From positions 1 to 30,263 of the IMG/VR virus record IMGVR_UViG_3300031566_000251: 30,263 nucleotides of DNA. The stretch is one strand, 5' to 3'. Below, piece by piece: positions 4,470 to 18,479 of the stretch (its first letter is position 1; every line of letters starts with the position of its first letter). The translations under genes and the position numbers were made by a program. The stretch is from a virus. The notes under the pieces are model-generated. The model had not been told where the DNA came from. It worked only from the letters and a program-made list of their open reading frames with translations, and did no database searches.

Positions 4470-6113
4470 ATGAAGTGGACCAAGATCCCAGAGACCCTCG
4501 CAGGTCTCAATGCCGAGCAGCTTCGCGAACTTGCCGTCGCGCTCCGCGCTGACCTCGATGCCAACTTGGCAGTCGCGGCGACGCCCGAGGACTTCGCCGA
4601 GTACGACTCGTACGCGGCGCGGTTCGCTCGCATCGAAGCGATGGCTCAGACGGCGCTCGCCGGCGAGGCCGCAACAGCCGAAGCAGAGCAGGTAGCCGCT
4701 GAAGCCGCAGCGACGGAAGCCGCCGCAGCCGAAGCCGCCGCAGCCGAGCCCGAGCCCGAGGTCGGCGAGGACGAGGCTGTGGAGCCCGAGGTCGTCGCAT
4801 CGACCCCGGTGGTCACCACGACCGAGGTCGCCACGGTTGCAGAGGTCGCGGTTCCGACCCGCCCGAGCGGCTCGGGATGGTACGCCACCCCCGACGGCGC
4901 CAACGCCATCGCCCAGGAGACCGGCTACCAGTTCGGCTCGATGACCGAACTCGCCGAGGCCGTCAGGCTCCGGGCCGACTCCATCCAGTCCGGCTCGGAC
5001 GTCAAGCACGTCATCGCCCAACAGCGCGGCAACTTCTCCGAGAGCCAAGACCTGTCCAACGACGTGGTCTTCAACCTCCAGAAGTTGCAGGACCAAGAGG
5101 AACTGACGGCCGCCATGTGCGCCCCGCTCACCCCCCTCTACGATCTGTCGTGTGCGAACACGATGCGCCGCCCCGTCGCCAACGGCCTCCCGCAGTTCCG
5201 CCTCCGGGCCGATCGCGGTGGCTTCACCGTCTACCCGTCGCCGTCACTGTCCGACATCACCACCGGCTACGGCCAGTGGACGTCGAGCGATGACTCCGAC
5301 GTCGACGCGCTGAAGACCTGCCAGACGATCACCTGCTCGTCCCCCGTCGAGTACGAGATCTACGGTGTGTACCGCTGCTTGACCGTCAAGCATCTGGTCC
5401 AGATGACGTTCCCCGAGATCGTTGAGGCATACCTCAACCGTCTCGGCGCCGCCTGGGCCCGCTACGCCGAGACCCTCCTGTTGGAGGCGATGGGCAACGG
5501 CTCGACGCAGCTCGCGACCGCCGACCTCGGCTACGGCGGCACGCAAACCGTCCTGTCAACGGTCCTCAACTACCTCGGCCTCTATCAAGAGATCGAGCGT
5601 TGGGACAACGGCATCATGGATGCGTGGATGCCCCGTTGGGTCCTGTACGCCATCAAGACCGACCTGATGCGCCGCCGCCGCACCGATGGCGGCGTCCAGT
5701 TGGTCCCGTCCGATGAGTCGATCAACGCGTTGTTCCGCAACGCCGGCGTCGAGCCTCACTGGTTCATGGACCGTCCGTCGTGGGCCACCCCGGTTCCCGG
5801 CATCGCCGTCAACGGTGTCCTGAACTTCTTCCCACGGTCGGTCGAGATCCTCGTCCACCCGAGGGGCAAGTTCGCTCTGATGGATCGGGGCAACCTGAAC
5901 ATCGGTGTCACCGGCAACAACCAGTACCGGGTCGACGACGACCTGCTTCGGAACCAGTTCCGGTTCTTCTTCGAGTCGTTCGAGGGTGTCATCAACACGA
6001 ACACCTGCCCGGCGCACATCTTGCAGATCGACACGACCTGCTGGAACGGCGTCCAGATCGACGACCAGGTGATGGGCTGCGCCGGCGAAGACGTCATCGG
6101 CGTCGGTTCCTGA
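4470..6113 (+). CDS. Major capsid protein with fused N-terminal scaffold-like domain
   Basis: This is the HK97-type major capsid protein, the building block of the icosahedral shell. The product is 547 residues. Residues 1-62 are helical, 63-130 are Ala/Glu/Val-rich low complexity, and the shell domain appears to begin near 132. No separate scaffold gene is present, so the N-terminal part likely acts as the scaffold and is removed by the upstream protease; the cut is probably somewhere around residue 130, which is inference. The shell part is unusually rich in Cys (MCAPLTPLYDLSC, KTCQTITC, TNTCPAH, TTCW, MGC). A strong AGGAGG (4458-4463) lies 6 bases before the ATG, unlike most genes here. 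It is flanked by its own promoter-like element and terminator. Confidence 0.87.
   Translation: MKWTKIPETLAGLNAEQLRELAVALRADLDANLAVAATPEDFAEYDSYAARFARIEAMAQTALAGEAATAEAEQVAAEAAATEAAAAEAAAAEPEPEVGEDEAVEPEVVASTPVVTTTEVATVAEVAVPTRPSGSGWYATPDGANAIAQETGYQFGSMTELAEAVRLRADSIQSGSDVKHVIAQQRGNFSESQDLSNDVVFNLQKLQDQEELTAAMCAPLTPLYDLSCANTMRRPVANGLPQFRLRADRGGFTVYPSPSLSDITTGYGQWTSSDDSDVDALKTCQTITCSSPVEYEIYGVYRCLTVKHLVQMTFPEIVEAYLNRLGAAWARYAETLLLEAMGNGSTQLATADLGYGGTQTVLSTVLNYLGLYQEIERWDNGIMDAWMPRWVLYAIKTDLMRRRRTDGGVQLVPSDESINALFRNAGVEPHWFMDRPSWATPVPGIAVNGVLNFFPRSVEILVHPRGKFALMDRGNLNIGVTGNNQYRVDDDLLRNQFRFFFESFEGVINTNTCPAHILQIDTTCWNGVQIDDQVMGCAGEDVIGVGS
4716..4745 (+). repeat. Tandem 15-bp repeat in the scaffold-like region of the capsid gene
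   Basis: GAAGCCGCCGCAGCC is repeated twice without a gap (4716-4730, 4731-4745) and followed by a GAGCCC repeat. It encodes an Ala/Glu-rich linker and probably arose by replication slippage. Confidence 0.7.
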
Positions 6114-6135
6114 CCTACTCCAACTCAACTAGCAT

Positions 6136-6173
6136 GAGGCCCGGCTCGGTGAACACCGGGTCGGGCCTCTTTC
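6136..6173 (+). terminator. Terminator after the major capsid gene
   Basis: GAGGCCCG (6136-6143) and CGGGCCTC (6162-6169) form a perfect 8-bp stem. An inner CGGT/ACCG stem (6147-6150, 6155-6158) closes a GAAC tetraloop, and a short T run follows (6170-6173). It ends only 16 bases before the next gene, leaving no room for a promoter downstream, so 6190-8867 probably depends on read-through. Confidence 0.8.
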
Positions 6174-6189
6174 ATTCTCAGGAGCTGAC

Positions 6190-7380: not shown

Positions 7381-7381
7381 C

Positions 7382-7459
7382 ATGGAGGCAACGGTTTCGG
7401 GGCTACTGCAAGGGTCTAGCGGGACCGGTCTGCGTCCCGGCTCGCAAGGTTCTGGGCTA
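7382..7459 (+). repeat. Duplicated N-terminal anchor module, copy 1
   Basis: The first 26 codons match 8151-8228 with about eight base differences by eye. Similarity stops abruptly after the shared GSQGSGL residues. The short segment was duplicated and joined to unrelated domains. Confidence 0.85.
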
Positions 7460-8149
7460 GCTGTGGTGCAGCCGGTGGATTGGCACACACTGTTCTGGGC
7501 CGGTGGCCCGCTGATGCAAGCCGAGGGGTATGCGTCAAGTGATCCGATCACTTCCTGGCCGAACGAAACTGGCGAGTCGAGCTACACGACCGCTGTCGGC
7601 CCGCCAACGTACCAGACCGGGCAGTTCGGAATCTGGGGGAAGCCCTGCATCCAGTTCCTCGGTTCTGCCTATCTGCGGACCCCTGCATTTCTGGTGAACC
7701 CGACGTACCCGATCACCCGGATCATGGTCGTCGATATAGCCGCAACGCCTACCGGCGAGGACTTCCTCACTGACGGAATCACGAACACCGGGCGCAACCG
7801 GATCATGCAGTCCTCCAGTATGGGCGGTTCGTGGTCGATCGGGGCCAGCAGTGGATCGTCGGCGGCCGGGGTCGGGCCGTTCACGGGGTCGTTCGGAGTT
7901 CGCGCGGTATTTGACGGGTCGACTGGGCCGGACACGCTCTACTTGAACGGGGCGTACAAGGTCGGTGCCACCGACAGCGGCTCAGAAACACTCACCGGGC
8001 TCACGCTCGCCGCCGACTACGCGGGAGCGAACAACTTCAGCAACTTCAAGGTCGCCTTCGACGCAATCTACGAGGGGGACATCATCACCGATCCCGGTTG
8101 GCCAGACCTCCAGGCGTGGATTCTCGACCAGTACAATGTGGTGATTTGA
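7382..8149 (+). CDS. Probable head or tail fibre protein with LamG/ConA-like domain
   Basis: This is a 255-residue protein starting at ATG 7382, 1 base after the previous stop and with GGAG upstream. Residues 1-26 form a Gly/Ser-rich peptide nearly identical to the start of the next gene product. The rest reads as a jelly-roll of the concanavalin A/LamG type seen in phage fibres: a QFLGSAYLRTP strand, VVDIAA, FDGSTGPDTLYLNGAYKVG, then a FKVAFDAIYEG strand and a closing helix LQAWILDQYNVV. Such domains usually bind sugars or surfaces. Neighbouring the capsid genes, it is more likely a head fibre or decoration than part of the tail tip, but position alone does not settle this. Confidence 0.65.
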   Translation: MEATVSGLLQGSSGTGLRPGSQGSGLAVVQPVDWHTLFWAGGPLMQAEGYASSDPITSWPNETGESSYTTAVGPPTYQTGQFGIWGKPCIQFLGSAYLRTPAFLVNPTYPITRIMVVDIAATPTGEDFLTDGITNTGRNRIMQSSSMGGSWSIGASSGSSAAGVGPFTGSFGVRAVFDGSTGPDTLYLNGAYKVGATDSGSETLTGLTLAADYAGANNFSNFKVAFDAIYEGDIITDPGWPDLQAWILDQYNVVI

Positions 8150-8150
8150 C

Positions 8151-8228
8151 ATGAAGGCAACGGTTTCGGGGCTACTGCAAGGGTCGCACGGGACCGGGCT
8201 GCGTCCCGGCTCCCAAGGCTCCGGGCTC
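8151..8228 (+). repeat. Duplicated N-terminal anchor module, copy 2
   Basis: This is the second copy of the 78-base module at 7382-7459, again covering the first 26 codons of a gene. Confidence 0.85.
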
Positions 8229-8867
8229 GTTCCGAGTGCGGGAGGCGGCGCGCCCATCTGGGTTGGGGAGGCACTCGGGGCGTCGTCCAGCGCCACGGCA
8301 CTGTCGGTGAATCTTGGTGCGTTCTCTGCGGGCCAGTTCGCTGTTGTCTGGTGCATGTACAAGACGACTGGCACTTGGCCTGCGAAGACTGGGTGGACGC
8401 TTACGACTGGCACCACGGTAGACAACCGTGCGTACGGCATCTACTCTAAGGTGCTTGAGGCTGGGGACATTGGCGTGGTGCCGTTCCCAGGATTCTCGTT
8501 GCAGCGGGTGGCGAACGCTCAGGTGTTCAGTGGTGCGACTGGATGGTCGAACAGGAACGCTGGCACTTCGTCGTACAACGTCACCTGGGCGGCGGGCAAC
8601 CTTGCTGCCGCTGCGTTGGCTGTTCCTGCGGCGGCGATCGTGTTCTCGATCCGTACGGTGCGGTCGAGCCACTCCCTCCACGCCACGTTGCATCAGGGCT
8701 TCACGCCTGGCACTGCGATATCGTCGGGTTCGGACGGCAACGCCGCCTGCATCTCTGTGCTGGGTGCGCACCTGGATGTCGCTGATCCTTCTGGCGGTCA
8801 GACGGGGCCATCCTTCTCTGCGGCGACGCTCGCTCAGTCGTCTGCTGACATGTTCTGGGTGACGTGA
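8151..8867 (+). CDS. Probable fibre/decoration protein sharing its N-terminal anchor with the preceding gene
   Basis: This is a 238-residue protein. Residues 1-26 (MKATVSGLLQGS, then GTGLRPGSQGSGL) repeat the start of the preceding protein. Residues 35-238 are unrelated to it and look like the beta-sandwich found in phage fibre proteins and adhesins, with a WPAKTGWTL turn, AYGIYSKVLEAGDIGVVPF and long Ala/Ser/Thr-rich strands. The start lies 1 base after the previous stop; GGTGAT 5 bases upstream can act as a partial Shine-Dalgarno. A TACAAT at 8132-8137 could add internal transcription. It ends the capsid-proximal group; a 46-base gap and a new promoter follow. Confidence 0.62.
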   Translation: MKATVSGLLQGSHGTGLRPGSQGSGLVPSAGGGAPIWVGEALGASSSATALSVNLGAFSAGQFAVVWCMYKTTGTWPAKTGWTLTTGTTVDNRAYGIYSKVLEAGDIGVVPFPGFSLQRVANAQVFSGATGWSNRNAGTSSYNVTWAAGNLAAAALAVPAAAIVFSIRTVRSSHSLHATLHQGFTPGTAISSGSDGNAACISVLGAHLDVADPSGGQTGPSFSAATLAQSSADMFWVT

Positions 8868-8901
8868 GGGGGCTGGTAACGCTCCAACACCGAGCGTGTG
8901 A

Positions 8902-8913
8902 TACACTTGCGTC
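8902..8913 (+). promoter_or_regulatory. Leaderless-type -10 box heading the glycosyltransferase/methyltransferase cassette
   Basis: TACACT at 8902-8907, preceded by TGA, ends 6 bases before the ATG at 8914. No Shine-Dalgarno is present. It is the only clear promoter candidate for the ten-gene cassette to 16579 and nearly matches the box at 36-47. Confidence 0.7.
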
Positions 8914-9921
8914 ATGCACGTCGTCCAGCTCGGAAACCGGGTCCCGCCTTTCAGCACAGAGAACGACCTCCATCACGCGATGGTCGAAGGCAACGGCTGG
9001 GACGTCCGCTTCATCCAAGAAGGCGACAGCACGGCCTTGCTCCAGTTCATCACCGACCTCCAAGCCGGGTTCGAGCGGCCCGACTTCATCTTGTGGACCT
9101 CGACTCGCGACCTCGCCAACCAGTGGGGTCACGAACTCCAATGGAAGCTGCTCGCCGAAGCCCGCCGCCACAACATCCCCGTCGTCGCTTACCACCTCGA
9201 CAGATGGATGGGGCTGAAACGCCAGAACGCGATGCCCACCGAACCGTACTTCCGGGTCGATCTGCTCGCCACCGCCGACGGCGCCCATCAAGACGAATGG
9301 GCCAAAGCCGACGTCAACCATCACTGGATGCTCCCCGGCGTCTCCGAGCGCTGGTGCCAGCCCGGCACGTACCGCGAAGAACTGGCGACCGACATCGTGT
9401 TCGTCGGCTCCTGGCAGGACTATGGTCATCGTGAATGGCGCCATCGTGGTGAACTCGTCGCCTGGCTCCAGAAGACCTACGGGGATCGGGTCGCGTTCTA
9501 CCCGAAGCAAGGCGAGCACGCTGTCCGCGGCCTGGAGTTAAACGACGTGTACTGGTCAGCGAAGGTTGTCGTCGGCGACTCGTGTCTCGCCCCCAAAGTC
9601 GACGGTTCTCCGATGACCAACTACTGCTCGGACCGCGTCCCCGAGACCCTCGGCCGCGGCGGCTACCTCCTGCACCCGTCAGTGGAAGGCATCAACGACT
9701 TCCACGATCCGTTCTGGGATGCTGATTGCTTGTGTGATTGGTGGGAGATGGGCGACTGGGGCCAGCTCCGAACTCGGATCGACACCGAACTCAGCACAGG
9801 TGATTTCAGTTCCTCCGAGGAGCGCCTGCGTCGGATCGAACTCATCCGCGAGAACCACACCTACACGGTGCGGATGCGACAGCTTGCCGAACTGCTCATC
9901 GACAAAGGGATGCTGCCATGA
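8914..9921 (+). CDS. Glycosyltransferase, CgeB-like (GT-B fold)
   Basis: This is a 335-residue probable sugar transferase. The layout fits the CgeB-like group: an N-terminal Rossmann-like half (HVVQLGNRVPPFS; FILWTSTRDL), a middle strand TDIVFVGSWQDYGHREWRHRG of the type that marks the start of the nucleotide-sugar half, then SDRVPETLGRGGYLLHPSVEGI, matching the conserved donor-site region in which a cell surface or spore-coat transferase holds its nucleotide sugar. Donor and acceptor are unknown. It is the first gene of the cassette; the start is leaderless-type and the stop overlaps the next ATG by 4 bases. Its position within virion genes suggests the acceptor is a virion protein or a glycan on one. 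Confidence 0.72.
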   Translation: MHVVQLGNRVPPFSTENDLHHAMVEGNGWDVRFIQEGDSTALLQFITDLQAGFERPDFILWTSTRDLANQWGHELQWKLLAEARRHNIPVVAYHLDRWMGLKRQNAMPTEPYFRVDLLATADGAHQDEWAKADVNHHWMLPGVSERWCQPGTYREELATDIVFVGSWQDYGHREWRHRGELVAWLQKTYGDRVAFYPKQGEHAVRGLELNDVYWSAKVVVGDSCLAPKVDGSPMTNYCSDRVPETLGRGGYLLHPSVEGINDFHDPFWDADCLCDWWEMGDWGQLRTRIDTELSTGDFSSSEERLRRIELIRENHTYTVRMRQLAELLIDKGMLP

Positions 9922-10301
9922 CTGGCGAGATGTGGGTCATCGAATCCGGGGACTACTCGTACTATCAAGTTCGAGCAATCTGCGCGACAGAGGAGGAGGC
10001 CCGAGCCGCCTGCGAGCGAGCAAACAGAATGCTGGAGGGCTCCCACGAAGATCGCTGGGAGTGCTCTCCCCGTCCGATCATTGAAGCCGAGGATGTGTCC
10101 TTGCTGCATTGGGCGCAAGCGCGAGCCGACGGGACCCACATCTCTGGGTACACCAGAGTCGGTTTCCGCCAAGACGAAGGGGTTGTGGCGTGGGATTCGT
10201 CCGGGGCGTGGGTCACCACTGAGGCTTCGACGCCGGAGCGTGCCGCCAAGATCGCACAGGATCGTCAGGCCCAACTCAAAGCGGAAGCGATGTTGCCATG
10301 A
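9918..10301 (+). CDS. Small hypothetical protein in the glycan cassette
   Basis: This is a 127-residue protein with no family I can assign confidently. The first 35 residues (WVIESGDYSYYQVRAICATEEEARAACERAN) resemble short phage domains that start with a strand, then an ATEEEA helix. The rest is a mixed alpha/beta segment with a WDSSGAWVTT strand and an Ala/Lys-rich C-terminal helix. It overlaps both neighbours by 4 bases (ATGA), so it is translated as part of the cassette, but nothing links it to sugar chemistry except location. Confidence 0.6.
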   Translation: MTGEMWVIESGDYSYYQVRAICATEEEARAACERANRMLEGSHEDRWECSPRPIIEAEDVSLLHWAQARADGTHISGYTRVGFRQDEGVVAWDSSGAWVTTEASTPERAAKIAQDRQAQLKAEAMLP

Positions 10302-11128
10302 CCGGTGGAATGACCGACTGGCCGGAGATCACCTGCCAGCGAGGCCACGACCATCACGAGACGCGAGAGTTCACCATCGTGTTCAGCGGCCCCACCGCGT
10401 ACCGCGACCTCCCATCCATACCGCGGCGCTTCTCCGACACCTTCGAGATGGAGGTGTGGGACACGGAGAAGTACCCGGTCGACGGGGGGCCGTGGTGCCC
10501 GGCCCATGACGCCGTGTCCGAGACGCTCCTCTCCCTCGGCGTCTGGGATCCAGCCGAGACAATCCTGATGCTGGAGGCGTTCCGGTACTGCGACACGTTC
10601 ATCGACATCGGCGCCCAGCTCGGCTGGTACTCGATCCTTGCGCTGCGCTCCCAGATGAACGTAGTCGCGTTCGAGGCCGACCCGATCGTCTGCGACGTGC
10701 TGGAACGAAACATGGCTCGCCACGCTGAGTTTCTCGGGCACTACTCGGTGCAGGCCGAGCGGGTTGGGCCGCACTCCTCGATCCCATTCCCAGAGACGGA
10801 CGACCGGCTCGTGGTGAAGATCGACATCGAAGGAGCGGAAGCCGACGCGGTCAAGATGCTGGAGCCGTTGATGCCACAGATCGACTTCATGCTGATCGAA
10901 ATCTCCCCGTGCTTCAACGACACCTACCCCGACTTGGTCATCGACCTGATCCGGCGTGGCTTCAACGCCTACCTCGTCCCGCAGAAATCCATTCCTCCGG
11001 CACGCCTTGAAATCCTCCCCGACGACCTCGTCGACTGGGACATCGGATCAAACTTCGACGACATCAAGAAACTCGTCGCCTCCTGGGATCAGAGAAATCT
11101 CCTGTTCGTTCGGGATGGCGCGTGGTGA
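10298..11128 (+). CDS. FkbM-family SAM-dependent methyltransferase
   Basis: This is a 276-residue protein predicted to methylate a hydroxyl group, typically on a sugar. After a roughly 95-residue N-terminal extension, motif I FIDIGAQLGWYS is at 101-112, the acidic ribose-binding residue lies in FEADP (125-129), and KIDIEGAEADAVKML (174-188) is the signature of FkbM methyltransferases. These features together make the family secure, though the substrate is not known. It is one of two FkbM-like genes in the cassette (the other at 11718), so more than one hydroxyl or sugar may be capped. It overlaps both neighbours, with ATGA at 10298 and GTGA at 11125. Confidence 0.82.
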   Translation: MTGGMTDWPEITCQRGHDHHETREFTIVFSGPTAYRDLPSIPRRFSDTFEMEVWDTEKYPVDGGPWCPAHDAVSETLLSLGVWDPAETILMLEAFRYCDTFIDIGAQLGWYSILALRSQMNVVAFEADPIVCDVLERNMARHAEFLGHYSVQAERVGPHSSIPFPETDDRLVVKIDIEGAEADAVKMLEPLMPQIDFMLIEISPCFNDTYPDLVIDLIRRGFNAYLVPQKSIPPARLEILPDDLVDWDIGSNFDDIKKLVASWDQRNLLFVRDGAW

Positions 11129-11721
11129 GCGCCTCCGAACGGTTCTGGTGGGACAGCCTGGAAGGCAATGAGATCGACGACAACACGGCGGGATATCCGC
11201 CGTACGACGTTACCCAAACCGCCAGCTTCATCCTTGACGCGATCCGTCCGATCTCTGGATTCGCGCGGCTTCTCGACCTCGGCTGCGGGAAGGGGAGGCT
11301 CACAGCCGAGGTCGCTCAACATGTTCCATCCGAGGTAGAAATCGTCGGCGTCGACATCTCACCCAAGATGATCGACCTGGCGAAACGCTGGCCGGACAGG
11401 AACGTCCTCTACCGCGTCGGCGACGGCCGGAACCTGCCGGAGCGTTGCGGCATGTTCGACGGCGCGTGGTCGGTCGCGATGTTCCAACACATTCCTCATG
11501 AAGCGAAACTGGGCTACCTGTTCGAGGTGTGCGATCATCTTCGGTCCGGTGCCACATTCGTGTTCACCGTCGCCGTCGGCGACGAGGACATGTTCCTGAA
11601 CCACCAACTCACCGAAGACGATCTCACCGAACTGATCTCCTGGATGTCGGTACTCTTCGACCGCATTGTCGAGCATCCGGTCGACGAGAACGGCTGGACG
11701 TGGATCGAGGCAACCAAATGA
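11125..11721 (+). CDS. Class I SAM-dependent methyltransferase
   Basis: This is a 198-residue methyltransferase with motif I LLDLGCGKG (49-57), GVDISPKM (75-82) and a VGDGRNLPE segment (about 95) that normally packs on the adenine, followed by FDGAWSVAMFQHI (motif IV-like). It is of the UbiE/type-11 style rather than FkbM. The GTG at 11125 is chosen because it gives the 4-base GTGA overlap seen throughout; a GTG at 11122 would add one residue. Substrate unknown; sugar or a glycan precursor is the likeliest given the flanking genes. Confidence 0.8.
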   Translation: MSASERFWWDSLEGNEIDDNTAGYPPYDVTQTASFILDAIRPISGFARLLDLGCGKGRLTAEVAQHVPSEVEIVGVDISPKMIDLAKRWPDRNVLYRVGDGRNLPERCGMFDGAWSVAMFQHIPHEAKLGYLFEVCDHLRSGATFVFTVAVGDEDMFLNHQLTEDDLTELISWMSVLFDRIVEHPVDENGWTWIEATK

Positions 11722-12422
11722 CACCCGTCACCATCAACCAACGCTGGACCCTCCTGCTCCCCGAGCACCGCGACCGCGGCGAATGGTGGGACAACTGGGA
11801 GAAGGAGCGCCTCGCCTCCATGAGCGACCAGCTCACCCCACTCCTCGGAGAGGTCGTCTACTACGCCGGCGCAGAGCAGGGCGACATGCCCGCACTGCTC
11901 ACCTCATGGGGATGCGACACCGTCCTCGTCGAACCGGTAGCCAGAGTCTGGCCGAACATGCGCGCCATCTACGAAGCGAACAACCTGAAGGACCCCCTCG
12001 CCTGCTTCGTCGGCTTCGCCGGAGCAGCAGACCGCGGCAACCCTGGCATCGACGAAGGCTGGCCGCCCGAAGCGTCCGGCGACGTCACCGATGTCGAAGG
12101 CTTCGCGAACCTGTGGGAGCGCGACGACCTCCCGATCATCGCGCTCGACTCCCTCCCCGACGCCGGCATCGACCCGCCATCTGCGATCTCCATCGACGTC
12201 GAAGGCTCCGAACTTGAGGTGCTGCGAGGCGCCACCGGCTGCCTGCTACTTCATCGTCCACTCGTGTGGGTGTCGATCCACCCGACCTTCATGGCCGACC
12301 TGTACGACCAGCACCCCGACGAGATCTTCTCGCTCATGGCGCGCCACGGCTACCGCGGCCGGATGCTCGCCGACTTGCACGAATCACATTGGCTCTTCTG
12401 GCCCGAGGAGTACCCGCGGTGA
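11718..12422 (+). CDS. Second FkbM-like methyltransferase, motif I degenerate
   Basis: This is a 234-residue protein. SIDVEGSELEVLRG (158-171) is a good FkbM signature and VEPV (71-74) matches the ribose-binding strand. Motif I is unusual: YYAGAEQGDMPALL (48-61) in place of the usual D-x-G-A-x-x-G, so the first acidic residue is missing. It may still bind SAM through the later Glu, or be impaired. It shares little sequence with the FkbM protein at 10298 beyond the motifs, so the two are distinct enzymes, not a recent duplication. Overlaps on both sides are 4 bases. Confidence 0.72.
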   Translation: MTPVTINQRWTLLLPEHRDRGEWWDNWEKERLASMSDQLTPLLGEVVYYAGAEQGDMPALLTSWGCDTVLVEPVARVWPNMRAIYEANNLKDPLACFVGFAGAADRGNPGIDEGWPPEASGDVTDVEGFANLWERDDLPIIALDSLPDAGIDPPSAISIDVEGSELEVLRGATGCLLLHRPLVWVSIHPTFMADLYDQHPDEIFSLMARHGYRGRMLADLHESHWLFWPEEYPR

Positions 12423-14182
12423 CCGAGGTTCTGGTTTCGTGGTTGTCGTATTGCGAGGACAACCCAGCCCGAGGGAGATGGGATCAAGCCTTCCTGGACC
12501 GGATGCTCGCCGGAGAGGAATGGCGGGTGCCGTCCGGCTTCCGGTTCAAGTCGGTCCCGTGGAACCCGGAGGACGGGCAGGGCCGCGTCATCGTGTTCCC
12601 GTGCGGCCACTACATCGAGCACGGCGAACGTCACACCGTCGCCTGGAAACTCCTGCGCGACCTGGAGAAGCTGCCTTGGGCGGTCTTGATCGCCACTTCC
12701 GACGAAGCCGACACGTTCGAGTGGAACAAGTTCGACCTCCCATCTCACGTCAAGCTGTGGGTGCAGTCGCCGCGGCCCGAGTCCACCTACCCGGAGGGGA
12801 CGTTCTTCCATCCGGTCGGTTCCCCGACCTCTGCGCGCGTCTGGGGTGACCCGGGCGACAAGCCGACCGACGTGTTCTTCTCCGGCCAGGTCAACCACGA
12901 GCGCCGTGAGGACTGCGTCACCGAGCTGTTCAAGCTGAAGATGGAACGCCCCGACCTCCAGATCGAAGTGCTCCCCACTGAAGGCTTCACGCAGGGCCTT
13001 CCACCCGACCAGTATCGGGACCACATGCGCGCAGCGAAGATCGTCCCATGCCCGGCTGGGATCTGCTCACAGGACACGTTCCGCTTCTGGGAAGCCCTGG
13101 AGGCCGGAGCGATGCCGATCGCCGACTCCCTGCGCCCCGACGGGACCGGTGAAGGATTCTGGGACCTCTTCCGACGTGCTGGATTCGGATACGCCCCCGC
13201 GATCGCCGAGATCCACGACTGGTCGAATGTGGGATCCACGGCGGAGTGGATGCTGAATGACCCAACGCTCCCTGCCGACATGTCCGCCCAATGGCAGCAG
13301 TACAAGCGCTCGATCGCCTATCGGCTCGACGATGACCTGTGGGACGTCATGGTGACCCGTCCCGCCAGCGAGTTCGGTCCGGCAGATCAGATCACCGTCG
13401 TCATCGTCACCTCACCAACGCCGTCGCACCCTTCGACTACGATCATCGACGAGACGATCACGTCGATTCAGGAACGCCTCCCCGGCGCCGAGATCCACAT
13501 CTTGGCCGACGGCGTCCGCAAGGAACAGCAAGACCGCGCCGCCGACTACTGGGAGTATGTAGCACGGTTGTGCTACAAGGTGAACGCCGACCCGACGATC
13601 GTCCCCTGGGCCCACGCCGAACACCTCCATCAGGCCGTCATGTTCCGCCACGCCCTGAACCGGATCAAGACCCCGTACGTCATGTTCGTCGAGCACGACA
13701 CCCCGCTCGTCGGCGAGATCGACTTCGATCACGTCCTCGCCGTCATGGAACACGACGAGATCAACTCGATGCGGTTCCTCCACGAAACCCATGTCCCCAT
13801 CGGATCGGAGGGCCTGTTCCTGGAGCGCAAAGGCACCGATGAACAGCCGTACCTGCGCACCATCCAGTGGTCCCAGCGTCCGCACGTCGCCCGAACCGAC
13901 TGGTATCGGGACCTGATCGCTTCCTACTTCGGCTGGGAATCGCGCACGATGATCGAAGACGTGGCTCATGGGCTAGTCCAGAACAACCACACCGGGAACC
14001 GGACGGCGCTACGCAAGGGCTGGAACAAGTGGAAGCTGGCAGTCTGGGCGCCACCCGGCGACAGCATCAAGTTCTCCACCCACCTTGACGGCCGCGCCGG
14101 AGACAGAAAGTACCCGATGAAAATTTCTTACGACGCCGACCGCCCCGAAGGTGCCCCCGAGGAGGGATGGCGGGATGCGTAG
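12419..14182 (+). CDS. Two-domain glycosyltransferase (exostosin-like plus GT2/GT-A-like)
   Basis: This is a 587-residue probable bifunctional enzyme. Residues 1-300 resemble exostosin-type GT-B transferases, with RVIVFPCGHYIEHGE, DVFFSGQVNHERRED (151-165) and CPAGICSQDTFRFWEALEAGAMPIA (211-235), the last being the nucleotide-sugar site. Residues about 322-587 look like a GT-A glycosyltransferase: ITVVIVTSPTPSHPS (324-338), a strand EIHILADG, then YVMFVEHDTPLVGEID (420-435), where E-H-D takes the place of the metal-binding DXD. Two active sites in one chain suggest that two sugars are added in succession. The GTG at 12419 gives a 4-base overlap; earlier in-frame ATGs lie inside the preceding gene. 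It is the largest gene in the cassette. Confidence 0.72.
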   Translation: MTEVLVSWLSYCEDNPARGRWDQAFLDRMLAGEEWRVPSGFRFKSVPWNPEDGQGRVIVFPCGHYIEHGERHTVAWKLLRDLEKLPWAVLIATSDEADTFEWNKFDLPSHVKLWVQSPRPESTYPEGTFFHPVGSPTSARVWGDPGDKPTDVFFSGQVNHERREDCVTELFKLKMERPDLQIEVLPTEGFTQGLPPDQYRDHMRAAKIVPCPAGICSQDTFRFWEALEAGAMPIADSLRPDGTGEGFWDLFRRAGFGYAPAIAEIHDWSNVGSTAEWMLNDPTLPADMSAQWQQYKRSIAYRLDDDLWDVMVTRPASEFGPADQITVVIVTSPTPSHPSTTIIDETITSIQERLPGAEIHILADGVRKEQQDRAADYWEYVARLCYKVNADPTIVPWAHAEHLHQAVMFRHALNRIKTPYVMFVEHDTPLVGEIDFDHVLAVMEHDEINSMRFLHETHVPIGSEGLFLERKGTDEQPYLRTIQWSQRPHVARTDWYRDLIASYFGWESRTMIEDVAHGLVQNNHTGNRTALRKGWNKWKLAVWAPPGDSIKFSTHLDGRAGDRKYPMKISYDADRPEGAPEEGWRDA

Positions 14183-14197
14183 CAGGAGAAGAAACCG

Positions 14198-14407
14198 ATG
14201 ATCGGATTCGCTATGTTCCGCAGATACGGCTCACTCGACGAGGTCTGGATCACCGTCGGCGAGGTGCAAGAAGTCTACGAGGGCGGGGGCGGGACGACGA
14301 TCCGCCATCGCGGCGGGTCCTGCCAGGTCTCCGAAGACGTCGACACTGTTCTCAAACGCCTGTTGGAGACAGGCATCCAAATGGCGAAGTTCGAGGAGTC
14401 CCAATGA
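14198..14407 (+). CDS. Small hypothetical protein
   Basis: This is a 69-residue protein, strand-rich in the first half (MFRRYGSLDEVWITVGEVQEVYE) with a GGGG turn and a C-terminal helix. It resembles short phage proteins that begin F-x-x-x-x-x-DEVWI and contain HRGGSCQV, but I cannot name a function. It is the only cassette gene with a clear Shine-Dalgarno (AGGAG, 14184-14188, 9 bases before ATG), fitting the 15-base gap after the large transferase. An eight-codon reading frame (14175-14201) spans this gap and ends in an ATGA overlap with this start. Confidence 0.6.
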   Translation: MIGFAMFRRYGSLDEVWITVGEVQEVYEGGGGTTIRHRGGSCQVSEDVDTVLKRLLETGIQMAKFEESQ

Positions 14408-14622
14408 AGAAGGAATGCAAGAATCCGACCTGCACCCGATCCGCAACAGCGACGTACTGCTCGCGGCAATGCCAGATCGCGATGCGTAACGTGTCCGCTG
14501 GTCGTCAGATCCCGGACATGTGGGTGAGCATGGATATGTGGTGGGCGCTCACAGGGATGGCCGAGATCCACAACATGTCGGTCTCCGACTACTGCCTCAG
14601 CCAGATCGAGGTCGGGCTGTGA
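14404..14622 (+). CDS. Small zinc-finger-like protein
   Basis: This is a 72-residue protein whose first 23 residues hold Cys at 5, 10, 19 and 23 (CKNPTC, then YCSRQC), a compact four-Cys zinc knuckle like those in small phage and bacterial proteins. The rest is a helix-rich segment. ATGA overlap with the previous gene and GTGA overlap with the next tie it to the cassette. Function unknown; a protein-protein or nucleic-acid contact role is possible. Confidence 0.62.
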   Translation: MKKECKNPTCTRSATATYCSRQCQIAMRNVSAGRQIPDMWVSMDMWWALTGMAEIHNMSVSDYCLSQIEVGL

Positions 14623-15647
14623 GCCTCGGGATCGTGGCGAGGTGTGACTCAAGGGGGATCGCGTACCAGTCCTGGGAGGCCGTCAACGCACTCCAGCCCG
14701 ACAAGATCCTGCTGGTGCTGCTCAACGATCGCAAGTGGCCCGAAGACCCGGCCCGCTTCGGTCGCCACAACGTCACCTACGTCGACTCCAGTCTCGGGCA
14801 TCGGATGCTGGACGAGAAGAAGGTCCGCAAGTTCCTGGACGGTCTTGACACCGTGTTCGCGATCGAAACACTCTACGACTGGGACATGGCCGACTGGGCC
14901 CGCGAAGCCGGCTGCCGCACGATCGTCCAAGGCAACCCCGAGTTCTACAACCACCACCGCCACCCCGAGCGCCCCCAGCCCGACGAATGGGTGTGGCCGA
15001 CCGAATGGATGCGAAGCCACGATGATCTACCCGAAGGCGATCTACTCCCTGTTCCAGCCCCCGCCTGGCTGGACACCGACACTCCGCATCCGGAAGCGGA
15101 AGTCCTCCGGGTCCTCCACGTCGCCGGCCACCGAGCCCTCGGCGACCGCAACGGCACCGACCTGTTCTTCGAGTCCCTCGCCCTGATCGGCACCCGCGTC
15201 CATGTCACCGTCATCGGCCAGGACGGCCAGCTCCCGAACGTCAAGGTCGGACGCAACGTCACGATCGAAACGAACCCGAAGGGCGTCAAGGACCGCTGGG
15301 ATCTCTACAAGAACCAGCATGTCGCCGTGCTTCCCCGTCGCTACGGCGGGCTTTGCCTCCCAGCGACCGAAGCGTGCGCGCGCGGTGTCGTGCCGATGAT
15401 GCCTGATGTCTTGGAGAACAGCTTGTGGCCGATCCTCCCACTGCCCGCCCGTTCCGGTCGTCTCCAGCGGGTCCCGTTCGGTGTCGTGCCGACCTGGGCG
15501 ATCCGGCCGAACGCGATCGCCCACGAGATCGACAAACTGAACCGGCATCGCGAACTCCTCGTCGAAGCCCAACGCAAAGCGCTCGACTGGGCCGACGACA
15601 ACTCGTGGGAGTCATGGGAGCCCGCCTACCGGGGGGTCCTGGGATGA
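14619..15647 (+). CDS. Glycosyltransferase, GT-B fold (GT4-like)
   Basis: This is a 342-residue probable sugar transferase. The N-terminal domain contains LGIVARCDSRGIAYQSWEAV and a Rossmann-like layout. The C-terminal domain starts at VLRVLHVAGHRALGDRNGTD (about 160-180), which is the usual opening of the donor-binding half of family 4 enzymes, followed by VTVIGQDG and VAVLPRRYGGLCLPATEACARGVVP (about 230-255), the E-x7-E-like donor-site region in which Ala/Cys/Gly surround the nucleotide. GTG start by 4-base overlap. Sugar and acceptor are unknown. Confidence 0.75.
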   Translation: MSLGIVARCDSRGIAYQSWEAVNALQPDKILLVLLNDRKWPEDPARFGRHNVTYVDSSLGHRMLDEKKVRKFLDGLDTVFAIETLYDWDMADWAREAGCRTIVQGNPEFYNHHRHPERPQPDEWVWPTEWMRSHDDLPEGDLLPVPAPAWLDTDTPHPEAEVLRVLHVAGHRALGDRNGTDLFFESLALIGTRVHVTVIGQDGQLPNVKVGRNVTIETNPKGVKDRWDLYKNQHVAVLPRRYGGLCLPATEACARGVVPMMPDVLENSLWPILPLPARSGRLQRVPFGVVPTWAIRPNAIAHEIDKLNRHRELLVEAQRKALDWADDNSWESWEPAYRGVLG

Positions 15648-16579
15648 AGATCCATGCAGTCGGATCCTTGCCGCACTACCGCGATCACGTCGAAGCCACC
15701 TGGCAGCATCTCCCGGACGCCCTGAAAGGTGAGCAGTCGTGGGGCCGCGGGGCCTCTGCTCCCAGAAGTGCTGACCCCCGCGACCTTGTGATGGTTGCTG
15801 GGTATTACGACGTCGACCGGGCCCGCGGTCACAGCGTGGTCTATGTCGAGCACGGCGCCGGGCAGTCCTACTACTCGGAGAACGGCAAGCCGCACCCCGC
15901 CTACCACGGCTCGGAGCACCCGGACAACGTTGTCGTCTACCTGTCGCCGAATCAGAAGGTCGCCGACTCATGGGATCGCCCTGCCTACGCCGTCGGCGCG
16001 CCCGTCTGTGACCCGTACCCGTTGATCACCGACAACCAGAGGCCAGTCGTCGCCATCACCTTCCACTGGGACTGCACGCTGTTCCCGGAGACCCGTTCCG
16101 CGCTCGACCACTACCAGAAACATCTCGGCCGCCTCGTCCGGTTCTTGCGCGAGCAAGGGTTCGATGTCCTCGGACACCACCACCCCCGCGACCCGCGCCT
16201 GCCCATCATCTGGCGCAACCTCCAGGTTCGCCCGGCCACCGTCCACGAGGTTCGCCGGTCCGCCGACATCCTGGTCGTCGACAACAGCTCCCTCGCCTAC
16301 GAGATGCTGTACCTCAACCGCTCCGTCGTCACCCTCAACGCCCCCTGGTATCGACGTGAGGTCGAACACGGCCTCCGCTTCTGGGAACACGTCCCCGGCC
16401 AAGCCGTAGATGAACCAGAAGAACTCTTCGATATCGACTGGCAGTCATTTGTCGCCACCCCCGGGATGCCGCCGATGTCAGCAGTCCCAGCGCTCGCCGC
16501 GTACGGCAACGCGATGTCTGACGGCGGCGACGGGATTCGCGCTGCGGCGAGCGTGACCGCGTTCGTTGCAGGGATGTAG
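15644..16579 (+). CDS. Probable CDP-glycerol/polyol-phosphate transferase-like GT-B enzyme
   Basis: This is a 311-residue protein. VVYVEHGAGQSY (65-76) recalls the H-G-x motif of the N-terminal half of teichoic-acid-type polymerases (TagF/TagB family), and SADILVVDNSSLAYEMLYLNRSVVTL (206-231) closely follows their donor-site pattern T-D-x-S-S-x-x-x-E-x-x-x-x-x-x-P-V. It is shorter than full polymerases, so a single-addition enzyme is more likely than a polymerase. If correct, the cassette attaches a glycerol- or ribitol-phosphate, or similar group, to the glycan. A capsular-polysaccharide or other GT-B enzyme is the alternative. The stop codon TAG (16577-16579) forms the first half of the next gene's -10 box. 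Confidence 0.6.
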   Translation: MKIHAVGSLPHYRDHVEATWQHLPDALKGEQSWGRGASAPRSADPRDLVMVAGYYDVDRARGHSVVYVEHGAGQSYYSENGKPHPAYHGSEHPDNVVVYLSPNQKVADSWDRPAYAVGAPVCDPYPLITDNQRPVVAITFHWDCTLFPETRSALDHYQKHLGRLVRFLREQGFDVLGHHHPRDPRLPIIWRNLQVRPATVHEVRRSADILVVDNSSLAYEMLYLNRSVVTLNAPWYRREVEHGLRFWEHVPGQAVDEPEELFDIDWQSFVATPGMPPMSAVPALAAYGNAMSDGGDGIRAAASVTAFVAGM

Positions 16580-16588
16580 TCTCCAAAT
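16577..16588 (+). promoter_or_regulatory. Leaderless-type promoter built on a stop codon, ahead of the connector gene
   Basis: TAGTCT (16577-16582) ends 6 bases before the ATG at 16589. Its TAG is the stop of the preceding gene. GTGACC at 16553-16558, 18 bases upstream, is a fair -35. No Shine-Dalgarno is present. Confidence 0.65.
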
Positions 16589-17347
16589 ATGACACTTCGC
16601 GCCGCCGCCGAACAGTTCGTCACTCTCGCTGACGTGCGGGCCGCACCGAGCTGTAGCTGCATCACAGATGATGACCCGTCAGACGCTGACGTCGGGCTAC
16701 TGATCGACGCTGCCAGCGATGCACTCACGGTCCTGTCCGGTGGCGCCGTGTTCGGCCGCCAGACGGCGACGTTCTTCCCGTGCCGGGTCCTTCCAGACAG
16801 ATGCGGATGCGGATGCGGGTGTGGGCTTGACGCGATCCCACTCGACGGCCACGATCCCGTCGTCACCGAAGTCAAGATCGACGGCGTCGCGCTGGACGCC
16901 GCCGACTACAACCTGCACTCCGGGCGCGACGGCCGCTGGCATCTCGTCCGCGAGGCCACCGACCTCCAACCGAACTCATGGCCGTCGTCTCAGTCGATGT
17001 GGCGCCCCGATACCGAAGACGACACGTTCTCGGTCACCTACACCTATGGTCAGCACCTCGACTGGATCACCGAACAGGCCGCCCTGGAGCTGGTCTGCGA
17101 CTTCGCTGCCGAGAACGTCACCAAGACCAACCAGATCGCCCCGGGAGCCACCTCAGCAAACCTGGGAGGCGTCACGGTCGGGTTCGGCACCGGGTACACC
17201 CTCGCCGAGCGCCTGGAGCGCCTCCAGGCCGGCGACCTCGGCCCCGCGGTCACCAGGTTCATGTCGGTCTACGCACCCCACGGTCGTCGCCATTCCGAGG
17301 TGTGGGCTCCTGAACTTGAGCCGTGGAAGATGACCGTCAAGCAGTGA
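16589..17347 (+). CDS. Head-tail connector (adaptor) protein, Cys-rich
   Basis: This is a 252-residue protein fitting the gp6/gp15-like adaptor that docks on the portal: an N-terminal helical part with ITDDDPSDADVGLLIDAASDAL (a start common in these proteins), a strand VVTEVKIDGVALDAADYNLHSG giving the insertion loop, then LDWITEQAALELVCDFAAENV. The C-terminal WAPELEPWK is tail-like. It contains an extraordinary C-G-C-G-C-G-C-G run at 72-79, plus C22, C24 and C65, not typical of adaptors. The leaderless start is supported by a TAGTCT box. The stop overlaps the HNH gene by 4 bases. Confidence 0.75.
   Translation: MTLRAAAEQFVTLADVRAAPSCSCITDDDPSDADVGLLIDAASDALTVLSGGAVFGRQTATFFPCRVLPDRCGCGCGCGLDAIPLDGHDPVVTEVKIDGVALDAADYNLHSGRDGRWHLVREATDLQPNSWPSSQSMWRPDTEDDTFSVTYTYGQHLDWITEQAALELVCDFAAENVTKTNQIAPGATSANLGGVTVGFGTGYTLAERLERLQAGDLGPAVTRFMSVYAPHGRRHSEVWAPELEPWKMTVKQ
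16800..16823 (+). repeat. Hexanucleotide repeat encoding alternating Cys-Gly
   Basis: GATGCG occurs three times in tandem (16800-16817) and continues as a degenerate GGTGTG unit. It encodes the alternating Cys-Gly run in the connector and could expand or contract in steps of two residues. Confidence 0.7.
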
Positions 17348-17691
17348 AGCGCTCACCGATGAAGCGGGGCAAGCCACTGGCCCGAACTCGGATGAACAAG
17401 AAGCCGCCGCCACAGGGGTTCCCCGAGGAAATCCGGGTGTTTGTTCGCCGTCGGTCAGGCGGCCGATGCGAGGTCGTCAGCTCGGCCTGCACCACCACCG
17501 CCCAGCATTTCCATCATCGCAAGCTGCGCCGGCACAAGGACCACACGTCGGTGAACTGCCTCTACGCCTGCACGGCGTGCCATACCTACATCCACGCCCA
17601 TCCGACGATGTCGTATCTGATGGGCTGGCTGGTGCATTCGTGGGACGAGCCGAGCGAGATCCCGGTGAAACGAGGGGCCGGAGGCCCTTGA
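17344..17691 (+). CDS. HNH endonuclease
   Basis: This is a 115-residue small nuclease. The zinc-binding Cys pairs are C42/C49 and C76/C79, and the catalytic His is in HFHHRK (56-60). N71 and the CHTYIHAHP segment (79-87) complete the HNH signature. The first 25 residues are strongly basic and probably bind DNA. A GTG at 17344 gives a GTGA overlap with the connector and is preferred over ATG 17323. In many phages an HNH protein helps terminase cut DNA, but that gene normally sits beside terminase; here it is between connector and major tail genes, so a homing-type or stand-alone nickase role is equally possible. Confidence 0.8.
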   Translation: MKRSPMKRGKPLARTRMNKKPPPQGFPEEIRVFVRRRSGGRCEVVSSACTTTAQHFHHRKLRRHKDHTSVNCLYACTACHTYIHAHPTMSYLMGWLVHSWDEPSEIPVKRGAGGP

Positions 17692-17719
17692 CTATGGAGG
17701 CCCTCCGGGTGCGAGCATG
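17687..17719 (+). promoter_or_regulatory. Bipartite promoter-like element ahead of the major tail gene
   Basis: CTTGACTAT (17687-17695), 14 bases, TGCGAGCATG (17710-17719): the same two blocks and spacing as at 4391-4423, with an unrelated spacer. An inverted repeat CCGGAGG (17678-17684) / CCTCCGG (17702-17708) surrounds the left block and could be an operator or a weak hairpin. The leader to the ATG at 17757 is about 40 bases. Confidence 0.7.
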
Positions 17720-17756
17720 ACGTCCAAGAAGCGTCCCGACGCGAAAGGACCAACCC

Positions 17757-18479
17757 ATGCCCAGCGCACTCCCAGCAGCCGTCAACATCGGCCAGTTCAA
17801 TGCCTGCGTCGTCCGTGTGGCGAAGCTGGATACAGACTGCACGCCTCTCGGCGGCAACTCGTCTGGTTGGGTCACAGGTGGCCTTGTCACCATGACCGCC
17901 ACCCCCGACATCGAGGAGGGCACCGTCTTCGAGCCGAAGACCGCGTGCGGCTCGATCGCCTACACCTACGAGGATGCCGACAAGATCAAGCGGTACAACC
18001 TCTCGGGTGAGTTCATCTTCTTCGACGTCGAGGGCATGGAGATCATGTTCGGCGGGTCGACAATCGTCGGTGCTGCTGGTGGCGACTACGCCGCCGACAA
18101 CATCGGCTACGCCGCCCCCGACTACAACTCGGCCGCGACGAACGGCGTGTACCTCGAAGTCATCACCAAGGCTGTGGGCGAAGGCGCCGGCGACTGCGTG
18201 TCGTCCACTGGCGGGTTCCCGACCTACCACGGTCACATCTTCGGCAAGGTGAAGATGGTCCCCGGTGAGCGCACCTTCGAGAACGACGTCGCCCGCCTCG
18301 CCTTCACCGGCAAGGCCCGCTCGAACCCGGCCCTCTACAACGGCCCGTGGAACGACTACCCGGGCGCCGGGTACATCCCGACCGCCCCGTACCTCTACGT
18401 CGGCTACTCCGACGCCGAGTACGCTGCGATCCTCGCAGACATCGCCCCGGGTTACGCCGACCTTCCCGCTGGCAGCTAA
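17757..18479 (+). CDS. Major tail (tube) protein
   Basis: This is a 240-residue protein, most likely the tail tube subunit. The size, beta-rich sequence, position downstream of the connector and upstream of the chaperones and tape measure, and its own promoter and terminator as for the capsid gene, all fit. Visible elements are GLVTMTATPDIEEGTVFEP, a strand pattern AYTYEDADKIKRYNLSGEFIFFDVEGMEIMF typical of tube proteins, and FGKVKMVPGERTFENDVARLAFTGKAR near the C-terminus. AAAGGA (17744-17749) lies 7 bases before the ATG. Several Cys (17, 28, 64 and about 142) are unusual. The ending YADLPAGS shows no added Ig-like domain. Confidence 0.8.
   Translation: MPSALPAAVNIGQFNACVVRVAKLDTDCTPLGGNSSGWVTGGLVTMTATPDIEEGTVFEPKTACGSIAYTYEDADKIKRYNLSGEFIFFDVEGMEIMFGGSTIVGAAGGDYAADNIGYAAPDYNSAATNGVYLEVITKAVGEGAGDCVSSTGGFPTYHGHIFGKVKMVPGERTFENDVARLAFTGKARSNPALYNGPWNDYPGAGYIPTAPYLYVGYSDAEYAAILADIAPGYADLPAGS

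What the first reader, a model, noticed from the sequence alone, without database searches (positions are those of the whole stretch)
8914..16579. Ten-gene glycan synthesis and methylation cassette inserted in the middle of the virion genes
Between capsid/fibre genes and the head-tail connector lie a CgeB-like transferase, an FkbM methyltransferase, a class I methyltransferase, a second FkbM-like methyltransferase, a double-headed exostosin/GT2-like enzyme, a GT4-like enzyme, a teichoic-acid-type phosphotransferase-like enzyme and three small proteins. Nearly all overlap by 4 bases and one promoter heads them. Known: some actinobacteriophage virions are glycosylated and encode transferases next to structural genes. 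Inference: this cassette builds a branched, multiply methylated, possibly polyol-phosphate-bearing glycan on virion proteins. Such a coat could mimic the host surface, shield from antibodies or aid adsorption.
Basis: partly seen in the sequence, partly recalled or inferred. Interest (0 to 1): 0.85.

Follow-up and report, generated by a model that had tools for sequence, protein, structure and literature searches.

The report
Phage cassette for sugar-coating its particles
This uncultured phage carries ten overlapping genes among its particle-building genes that most likely assemble a methylated sugar chain on a serine at the very end of its shell and tail-tube proteins, a known kind of coat in an unusually large form and with a tag that helps predict which particles wear it.

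Summary
The cassette is real: ten + strand genes at 8914-16579, eight of nine junctions overlapping by 4 bp, between capsid-accessory genes and the head-tail adaptor. HMMs and two AlphaFold models support five glycosyltransferase-type domains (CgeB-like, exostosin-like GT47 plus GT-A, GT4, TagF-like GT-B) and three methyltransferases; none has a membrane segment. In four relatives the capsid-accessory gene and adaptor abut, with no cassette. In close relatives with a cassette the first and last two genes are constant and the middle varies: methyltransferases, epimerase, or, in one, a PAPS pathway plus sulfotransferase. The best clue to the acceptor lay outside: the major capsid and major tail proteins both end in -Gly-Ser, the only two of 32 window genes that do. 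Of 18 cassette-bearing capsid clusters 17 end in Ser, against 5 of 21 without (Fisher 1e-5; relatedness not removed), and the pattern recurs in unrelated phages and in Che8, reported to be glycosylated. Best reading: virion O-glycosylation at C-terminal serines. Virion glycosylation is known, and Omega-type phages carry a cassette at the same place, so this is a new variant. Polyol-phosphate, branching and immune roles remain unproven; the 'one promoter' was not found.

The parts
8914..9921 (+). g1, CgeB-like glycosyltransferase (335 aa), first gene of the cassette; core gene
   Evidence: PHROG 28745 E 9e-34; relatives 38-52% in L007/8, L087, L092, L096, L106, L109 and 28-32% in Streptomyces phage Dryad gp34
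9918..10301 (+). g2, small protein of unknown function (127 aa)
   Evidence: no convincing family
10298..11128 (+). g3, FkbM-family methyltransferase (276 aa)
   Evidence: TIGR01444 41.8 bits over cut-off 37.7; DIGAQLG and IDIEGAE motifs
11125..11721 (+). g4, class I SAM methyltransferase (198 aa)
   Evidence: Methyltransf_25 E 5e-18; LDLGCGKG motif
11718..12422 (+). g5, second FkbM-family methyltransferase (234 aa)
   Evidence: Methyltransf_21 31.0 bits over cut-off; TIGR01444 over cut-off
12419..14182 (+). g6, two-headed transferase: exostosin-like GT47 half (1-313) and GT-A half (318-587)
   Evidence: halves are separate genes in about ten loci and are fused to g9 in L109
14198..14407 (+). 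g7, small protein of unknown function (69 aa)
   Evidence: gene call; no family
14404..14622 (+). g8, small Cys-rich (zinc-ribbon-like) protein (72 aa)
   Evidence: four Cys near the N-terminus; weak MYND match E 0.03 only
14619..15647 (+). g9, GT4-like glycosyltransferase (342 aa); core gene
   Evidence: Glyco_trans_1_4 E 6e-4, below cut-off; relatives 37-46% in the cassettes of sister phages
15644..16579 (+). g10, TagF-like GT-B enzyme (311 aa), always last before the adaptor in the close relatives; core gene
   Evidence: Glyphos_transf 22.0/22.1 bits; AlphaFold pLDDT 88, TagF Z 18.0 rmsd 3.5 over 282 residues; invariant EHG, HP, D..S
16589..17347 (+). head-tail adaptor, right border of the insertion
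   Evidence: PHROG 783 E 5e-18; directly follows cap2 in cassette-less L009-L012
6190..7380 (+). cap2, capsid-accessory protein next to the major capsid protein, left border of the site in relatives
   Evidence: conserved next to MCP in all close relatives
6099..6110 (+). C-terminal Gly-Val-Gly-Ser of the major capsid protein: proposed glycan acceptor
18465..18476 (+). C-terminal Pro-Ala-Gly-Ser of the major tail protein: proposed glycan acceptor

Best explanation
The cassette is a late-expressed, cytosolic pathway that builds an O-linked, multiply methylated oligosaccharide on the phage's own virion proteins. [quoted passage not shown] One enzyme puts the first sugar on the Ser, g1, g6 (two active sites) and g9 extend the chain from host nucleotide sugars, and g3, g4 and g5 methylate it. 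g10 is a TagF-like GT-B transferase that either starts the chain or adds the last unit. Shown here: gene content, predicted folds of g6 and g10, variable presence at a fixed site, constant core with variable middle, and the association of the C-terminal Ser with the cassette. Inferred: that the Ser is the acceptor, the order of steps, the donor sugars and the biological benefit.
For: Position: between cap2 and adaptor in the window, L007/8, L087, L088, L092, L106; site empty in L009-L012; after the adaptor in L093, L096, L109. Relatives of g10 or g1 lie among head genes in unrelated phages: beside the SU10-type adaptor in Rctr41k, beside a PHROG 10 MCP in L089/L090/L095, beside a PHROG 1328 MCP in L094, after portal and head-morphogenesis genes in L101-L105. 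Acceptor: MCP ..GVGS and MTP ..PAGS are the only -GS ends among 32 window genes. PHROG 777 family: MCP ends in Ser in 17 of 18 cassette clusters against 5 of 21 without (p 1e-5), MTP 15 of 16 against 8 of 20 (p 1e-3); portal 2 of 14 and protease 1 of 15 in the same loci. Later tests on data fetched after the idea: PHROG 10 MCPs, 8 of 8 next to enzymes end [Ala/Gly/Ser]-Ser; Rctr41k EGS/PGS, Dryad ALS/AGS; L105 AGS/PGS; Che8 TGS/DGS, reported to carry glycans on its capsid protein (PMC11256854); Corndog-type YungJamal VGS/GDS, whose cluster's enzymes are reported to modify capsid and tail tube (PMC11600133). L016 was singled out by its tails before enzymes were sought; its record then showed CgeB and GT4 matches. 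No cassette protein has a membrane segment.
Against: No chemical evidence. The Ser association is not perfect: L088 MCP ends GSGA, L138 MTP ATT, L009 MCP LLST, Omega-type NihilNomen MCP APSF; Xeno ends SGS/PAS with no transferase found; L011 has transferases on the other strand but ends DLV/AAP. On the MCP tree there are only about four independent contrasts (Ser goes the same way in 2.5 on average, never the other way), too few for significance. C-terminal Ser is common in these phages (17% of all proteins; 8 of 20 MTP clusters without cassette).
Confidence: 0.75

Rival explanations
1. Virion glycosylation, but on fibre or capsid-accessory proteins (fib1, fib2, cap2) instead of the C-termini of the major capsid and major tail proteins.
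For: The cassette follows fib1/fib2 directly; cap2 ends in Ser in 8 of 19 cassette clusters against 4 of 37 (p 0.014); in L088 an Mtd_N-type protein stands beside the enzymes.
Against: fib1/fib2 have no counterparts in the other cassette phages; window cap2 ends in TGAA; the association is strongest for MCP and MTP.
Confidence: 0.12
2. The enzymes modify the host envelope (superinfection exclusion or receptor change), as Gtr-type prophage genes do.
For: g10 resembles teichoic-acid and capsule polymerases; phage transferases that change host serotype are known (PMC12619734).
Against: No cassette protein has a membrane segment or signal, and no flippase is present; location among late head genes in unrelated phages; coupling to MCP/MTP ends.
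Confidence: 0.07
3. The enzymes glycosylate modified bases of phage DNA.
For: Phage glycosyltransferases that hypermodify DNA are known (cited in PMC12619734); L093 has a cytosine methylase inside its cassette.
Against: No base-modification gene recognised in the window; methyltransferases are of FkbM/small-molecule type; the multi-step GT47+GT-A+GT4 set, with epimerase or sulfotransferase in relatives, suits an oligosaccharide.
Confidence: 0.04
4. A sub-hypothesis rather than an alternative: the virion glycan carries polyol phosphate, added by g10 as a true CDP-polyol phosphotransferase.
For: TagF and TarL are the top folds (Z 18.0, 17.6); the D-x-SS region aligns with TarL.
Against: The next fold class is within 1.5 Z units; Pfam just under cut-off; no CDP-glycerol or CDP-ribitol synthesis gene seen in the window.
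Confidence: 0.25

Closest known systems
Virion O-glycosylation of mycobacteriophages (Freeman et al. 2023; Che8, Rita, cluster O)
   Same: Phage-encoded transferases, in cluster O with an O-methyltransferase, modify capsid and tail tube (PMC11600133, PMC11256854, PMC12619734). Che8 and YungJamal MCP/MTP end TGS/DGS and VGS/GDS, as here.
   Different: Two or three transferases there; ten genes here. Che8 has no g1-family gene. The original paper was not held, so I could not check whether it named the Ser.
Omegavirus (NihilNomen) cassette
   Same: Transferases, a kinase-like protein, a methyltransferase and UDP-glucose dehydrogenase lie between MCP and adaptor, the same position.
   Different: Another MCP family by annotation and different enzymes; MCP ends APSF and MTP GLS.
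Streptomyces phage Dryad gp34-gp36
   Same: g1-family transferase, a second transferase-like protein and an FkbM methyltransferase in one operon; MCP ..GSALS, MTP ..TAGS.
   Different: Three genes, beside a large protein after the lysis genes, not between head genes.
Chlorovirus (PBCV-1) capsid glycan machinery
   Same: Virus-encoded transferases and methylation of a capsid glycan (my knowledge); the g6 profile matches chlorovirus A075L (listed as AO75L).
   Different: Eukaryotic virus; N-linked glycan on internal Asn (my knowledge).
EXT1/EXT2 exostosins
   Same: g6 has GT47-like then GT-A domains in one chain; best whole-length fold match.
   Different: About 12-13% identity; domain arrangement differs (TM 0.3 over the whole chain); soluble.
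TagF/TarL teichoic acid polymerases
   Same: g10 fold and D-x-SS region.
   Different: Single 311-residue domain; score just under the Pfam cut-off; donor unknown.

Membership tests
Phage virion O-glycosylation systems (Che8/cluster O kind) | Phage-encoded glycosyltransferases | tested here: met
Phage virion O-glycosylation systems (Che8/cluster O kind) | Ser or Thr at the C-terminus of both capsid and tail-tube protein | tested here: met
   MCP ..GVGS, MTP ..PAGS; same in Che8 and YungJamal. That this is a defining feature is my inference from the reported C-terminal location (PMC12619734)
Phage virion O-glycosylation systems (Che8/cluster O kind) | Glycan covalently bound to the virion protein | not testable with these tools
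   needs mass spectrometry
CDP-glycerol glycerophosphotransferase (PF04464), g10 | Score above the curated cut-off | tested here: inconclusive
   22.0 against 22.1 bits
CDP-glycerol glycerophosphotransferase (PF04464), g10 | TagF-type GT-B fold | tested here: met
   TagF Z 18.0, rmsd 3.5, 282 residues
CDP-glycerol glycerophosphotransferase (PF04464), g10 | Transfers polyol phosphate from a CDP donor | not testable with these tools
   needs enzyme assay
Exostosin-like (GT47 plus GT-A) enzyme, g6 | GT47 domain | tested here: met
   profile match to exostosin structures E 0.001; fused relative L109 matches Exostosin_GT47 E 9e-8, just under cut-off
Exostosin-like (GT47 plus GT-A) enzyme, g6 | second, GT-A domain in the same chain | tested here: met
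   separate gene in about ten relatives
Gtr-type host serotype conversion | Membrane flippase and membrane-bound transferase | tested here: not met
   highest 19-residue Kyte-Doolittle mean in the ten proteins 1.38
FkbM methyltransferases, g3 and g5 | TIGR01444 above cut-off | tested here: met
   41.8 and 37.8 against 37.7 bits

The most novel reading that the evidence does not exclude
A C-terminal small-residue-Ser tag on both the capsid and the tail-tube protein is a general acceptor signal, evolved repeatedly in unrelated tailed phages together with swappable glycan cassettes (methylation, deacetylation, and in one sister phage self-made PAPS and sulfation), so that coated virions can be predicted from sequence alone, including uncultured ones.
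Probability: 0.55. Interest if true: 0.78.

Novelty: new variant of a known kind. Interest (0 to 1): 0.62.

Why it matters
In the papers I could reach, virion glycosylation is reported for a few mycobacteriophages. If this reading holds, it is far more widespread, including uncultured phages and one from a DAMO enrichment culture (Rctr41k), the coat is modular and exchangeable, and a short C-terminal tag gives a simple first test for who wears it. That makes acceptor site, initiating enzyme and purpose of the coat directly testable in existing laboratory phages.

Tried and rejected
DNA search of the cassette against phages: no match. Single-sequence searches for g6, g10 and MCP in viral contigs, and for g6 in genome contigs, found nothing; alignments were needed. 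'Any transferase in the record predicts the Ser tag' was rejected: jumbo relatives (L006, L029, L056) have transferases far from head genes and MCP ending in VAG. 'The tag is a clade marker only' could not be excluded within PHROG 777 and was weakened by unrelated MCP families. Fibres as common substrate: no fib1/fib2 homologues in sister phages. Freeman et al. 2023 and several control phage records were not held. Patience was fetched as a possible positive but has no GT2 match and ends LV/SG, so it stands as a negative. No paper found that names a C-terminal Ser tag or a phage PAPS-sulfotransferase capsid module; the open library is incomplete.
Full report
What is there. The window is a 30,263-base virus record holding the late genes of a tailed phage whose major capsid protein (MCP) is distantly related (about 23-29%) to that of Arthrobacter, Gordonia, Microbacterium and Mycobacterium phages. 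Ten + strand genes fill 8914-16579. Eight of nine junctions overlap by 4 bases; g6 and g7 are 15 bases apart. Left are portal, protease, MCP, cap2 and two fibre-like genes; right are adaptor, HNH, major tail protein (MTP) and tape measure. No sigma-70-type promoter was found in 6000-17800, so the claimed single promoter is not supported.

Enzymes. g1 belongs to a phage glycosyltransferase family (PHROG 28745), g3 and g5 to the FkbM methyltransferases, g4 to class I methyltransferases. g6 has two heads: its profile matches exostosin GT47 structures including the chlorovirus enzyme A075L, its model (pLDDT 86.6) is matched over its whole length by EXT2/EXT1 (E 3e-11), and its C half is GT-A (B4GALNT1 Z 17.3). 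The halves are separate genes in about ten other loci, and GT47, GT2-like and GT4 domains are fused into one 967-residue protein in L109, which ties g6 to g9. g10 (pLDDT 88) is GT-B and most like TagF (Z 18.0), TarL and capsule polymerases, with UDP-GlcNAc 2-epimerases at 16.6. None of the ten proteins has a membrane segment.

A natural experiment. Close relatives found through the MCP and g10 show the site full or empty. In L009-L012 cap2 abuts the adaptor; in the window, L007/L008, L087, L088, L092 and L106 a cassette lies between them. More distant phages (L093, L096, L109) have it just after the adaptor. In the close group the outer genes are constant (g1 first of the core, g9 and g10 last) and the middle is swapped: FkbM only (L106); FkbM and g6 (L092); FkbM, GT-A, NAD epimerase, methyltransferase and g6 (L087). 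L096, with the later insertion point, has a PIG-L-type deacetylase and two methyltransferases. L088 has sulfotransferase, CysD, CysN and APS kinase, the last three above curated cut-offs, with a g1-FkbM fusion. This is what a changeable glycan coat would look like.

The acceptor. Mycobacteriophage virions are reported to carry glycans at the C-termini of capsid and tail-tube proteins (Freeman et al. 2023, as cited in PMC12619734). I compared C-termini. In the window only MCP (..GVGS) and MTP (..PAGS) end in Gly-Ser among 32 called genes. The idea came from the first few cassette phages and was then tested on loci fetched later. In the PHROG 777 family, 17 of 18 cassette-bearing MCP clusters end in Ser against 5 of 21 others; of those five, L004 has transferases beside its head genes, L016 has CgeB and GT4 matches in its record, and L012, L061 and L081 are fragments. 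MTP: 15 of 16 against 8 of 20. Portal (2 of 14) and protease (1 of 15) in the same cassette loci do not share it. In a second, unrelated MCP family (PHROG 10) all eight distinct MCPs next to glycan enzymes end [Ala/Gly/Ser]-Ser, while relatives without them mostly end otherwise. Rctr41k (EGS/PGS), Dryad (ALS/AGS), L094 (PGS/FAS) and L105 (AGS/PGS) agree. Che8 ends TGS/DGS and YungJamal of the Corndog group VGS/GDS; Brujita and Saroj, with GT2 matches (weak in Saroj), end TAS/AGS and DGS/DAS; prophiCCUG48898T-1, Patience and lambda, with no GT2 match, do not have the pair.

Limits. The pattern was first seen in part of the data. Sequences are related: the MCP tree gives only about four independent contrasts, all same-direction or neutral, so the Fisher values overstate the case; the unrelated families carry the argument. 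Exceptions are listed: L088 MCP (GSGA), L138 MTP (ATT), L009 MCP (LLST), NihilNomen MCP (APSF), Xeno (tag without a transferase found), L011 (transferases without tag). Many viral records are fragments, so absence is weak. The Freeman paper itself was not readable here, so I cannot say whether the terminal Ser was already noted.

Mechanism. Most likely the ten genes are expressed late with the head genes, and soluble enzymes act in the host cytoplasm on capsid and tail-tube subunits whose C-terminal -Gly-Ser is exposed (exposure is assumed, not shown). One transferase adds the first sugar to the Ser; g1, g6 and g9 extend; g3-g5 methylate. g10 is a candidate for the protein-touching step because in Rctr41k it is the only enzyme of the families searched that was found near the head genes, yet both tags are present; but Dryad has tags without a g10 neighbour, so this is a guess (about one in three). 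The benefit (adsorption, protection, escape from antibodies or grazers) is untested.

Novelty. Virion glycosylation by phage enzymes is known, cluster O phages already pair an O-methyltransferase with transferases (PMC11600133; seen in YungJamal), and Omega-type phages carry a similarly long cassette at the same place. The window is therefore a new variant of a known kind. What is new, as far as the open literature searched shows, is the size and the two-headed exostosin-like enzyme, the full/empty-site comparison, the sulfation module in a sister phage, and the C-terminal Ser tag across unrelated phages.

Noticed in passing
L088:3475-7245: Sister phage carries sulfotransferase (NoeE-like), CysD, CysN and APS kinase beside the glycan genes: a phage apparently making its own PAPS to sulfate its coat.
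   Followed up: partly
window 7382-7471 and 8151-8240: Two consecutive fibre-like genes share a near-identical N-terminus (M[EK]ATVSGLLQGS.GTGLRPGSQGSGL; 73 of 90 bases equal) before unrelated bodies; not found in any fetched relative.
   Followed up: partly
window 6136-6169: Terminator-like 15-pair hairpin between MCP and cap2; could set the capsid/downstream expression ratio.
   Followed up: no
window 17344-17691: HNH endonuclease gene between adaptor and major tail protein, also in L007/L008, L088 and L092, not matched in L009-L012.
   Followed up: no
window 28460-29539: Repeat protein with VVDISTPASP-type repeats, weak match to the choice-of-anchor B family, at the tail-tip position.
   Followed up: no
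L004 (Gordonia phage Phendrix): Four structural proteins end in -GS: MCP, gp75, gp76 and the adaptor; two transferases lie between adaptor and tail genes.
   Followed up: partly
L093:8802-9986: A C-5 cytosine DNA methylase gene sits inside the glycan cassette, between g9 and g10.
   Followed up: no
L144, L165, L192: Distant relatives carry the cassette between MCP and cap2, a third insertion point in the same head-gene block.
   Followed up: no
L267 (NihilNomen) 2562-3071: APH/Kdo-kinase-like protein annotated as Ser/Thr kinase within the glycan cassette: possible glycan phosphorylation.
   Followed up: no
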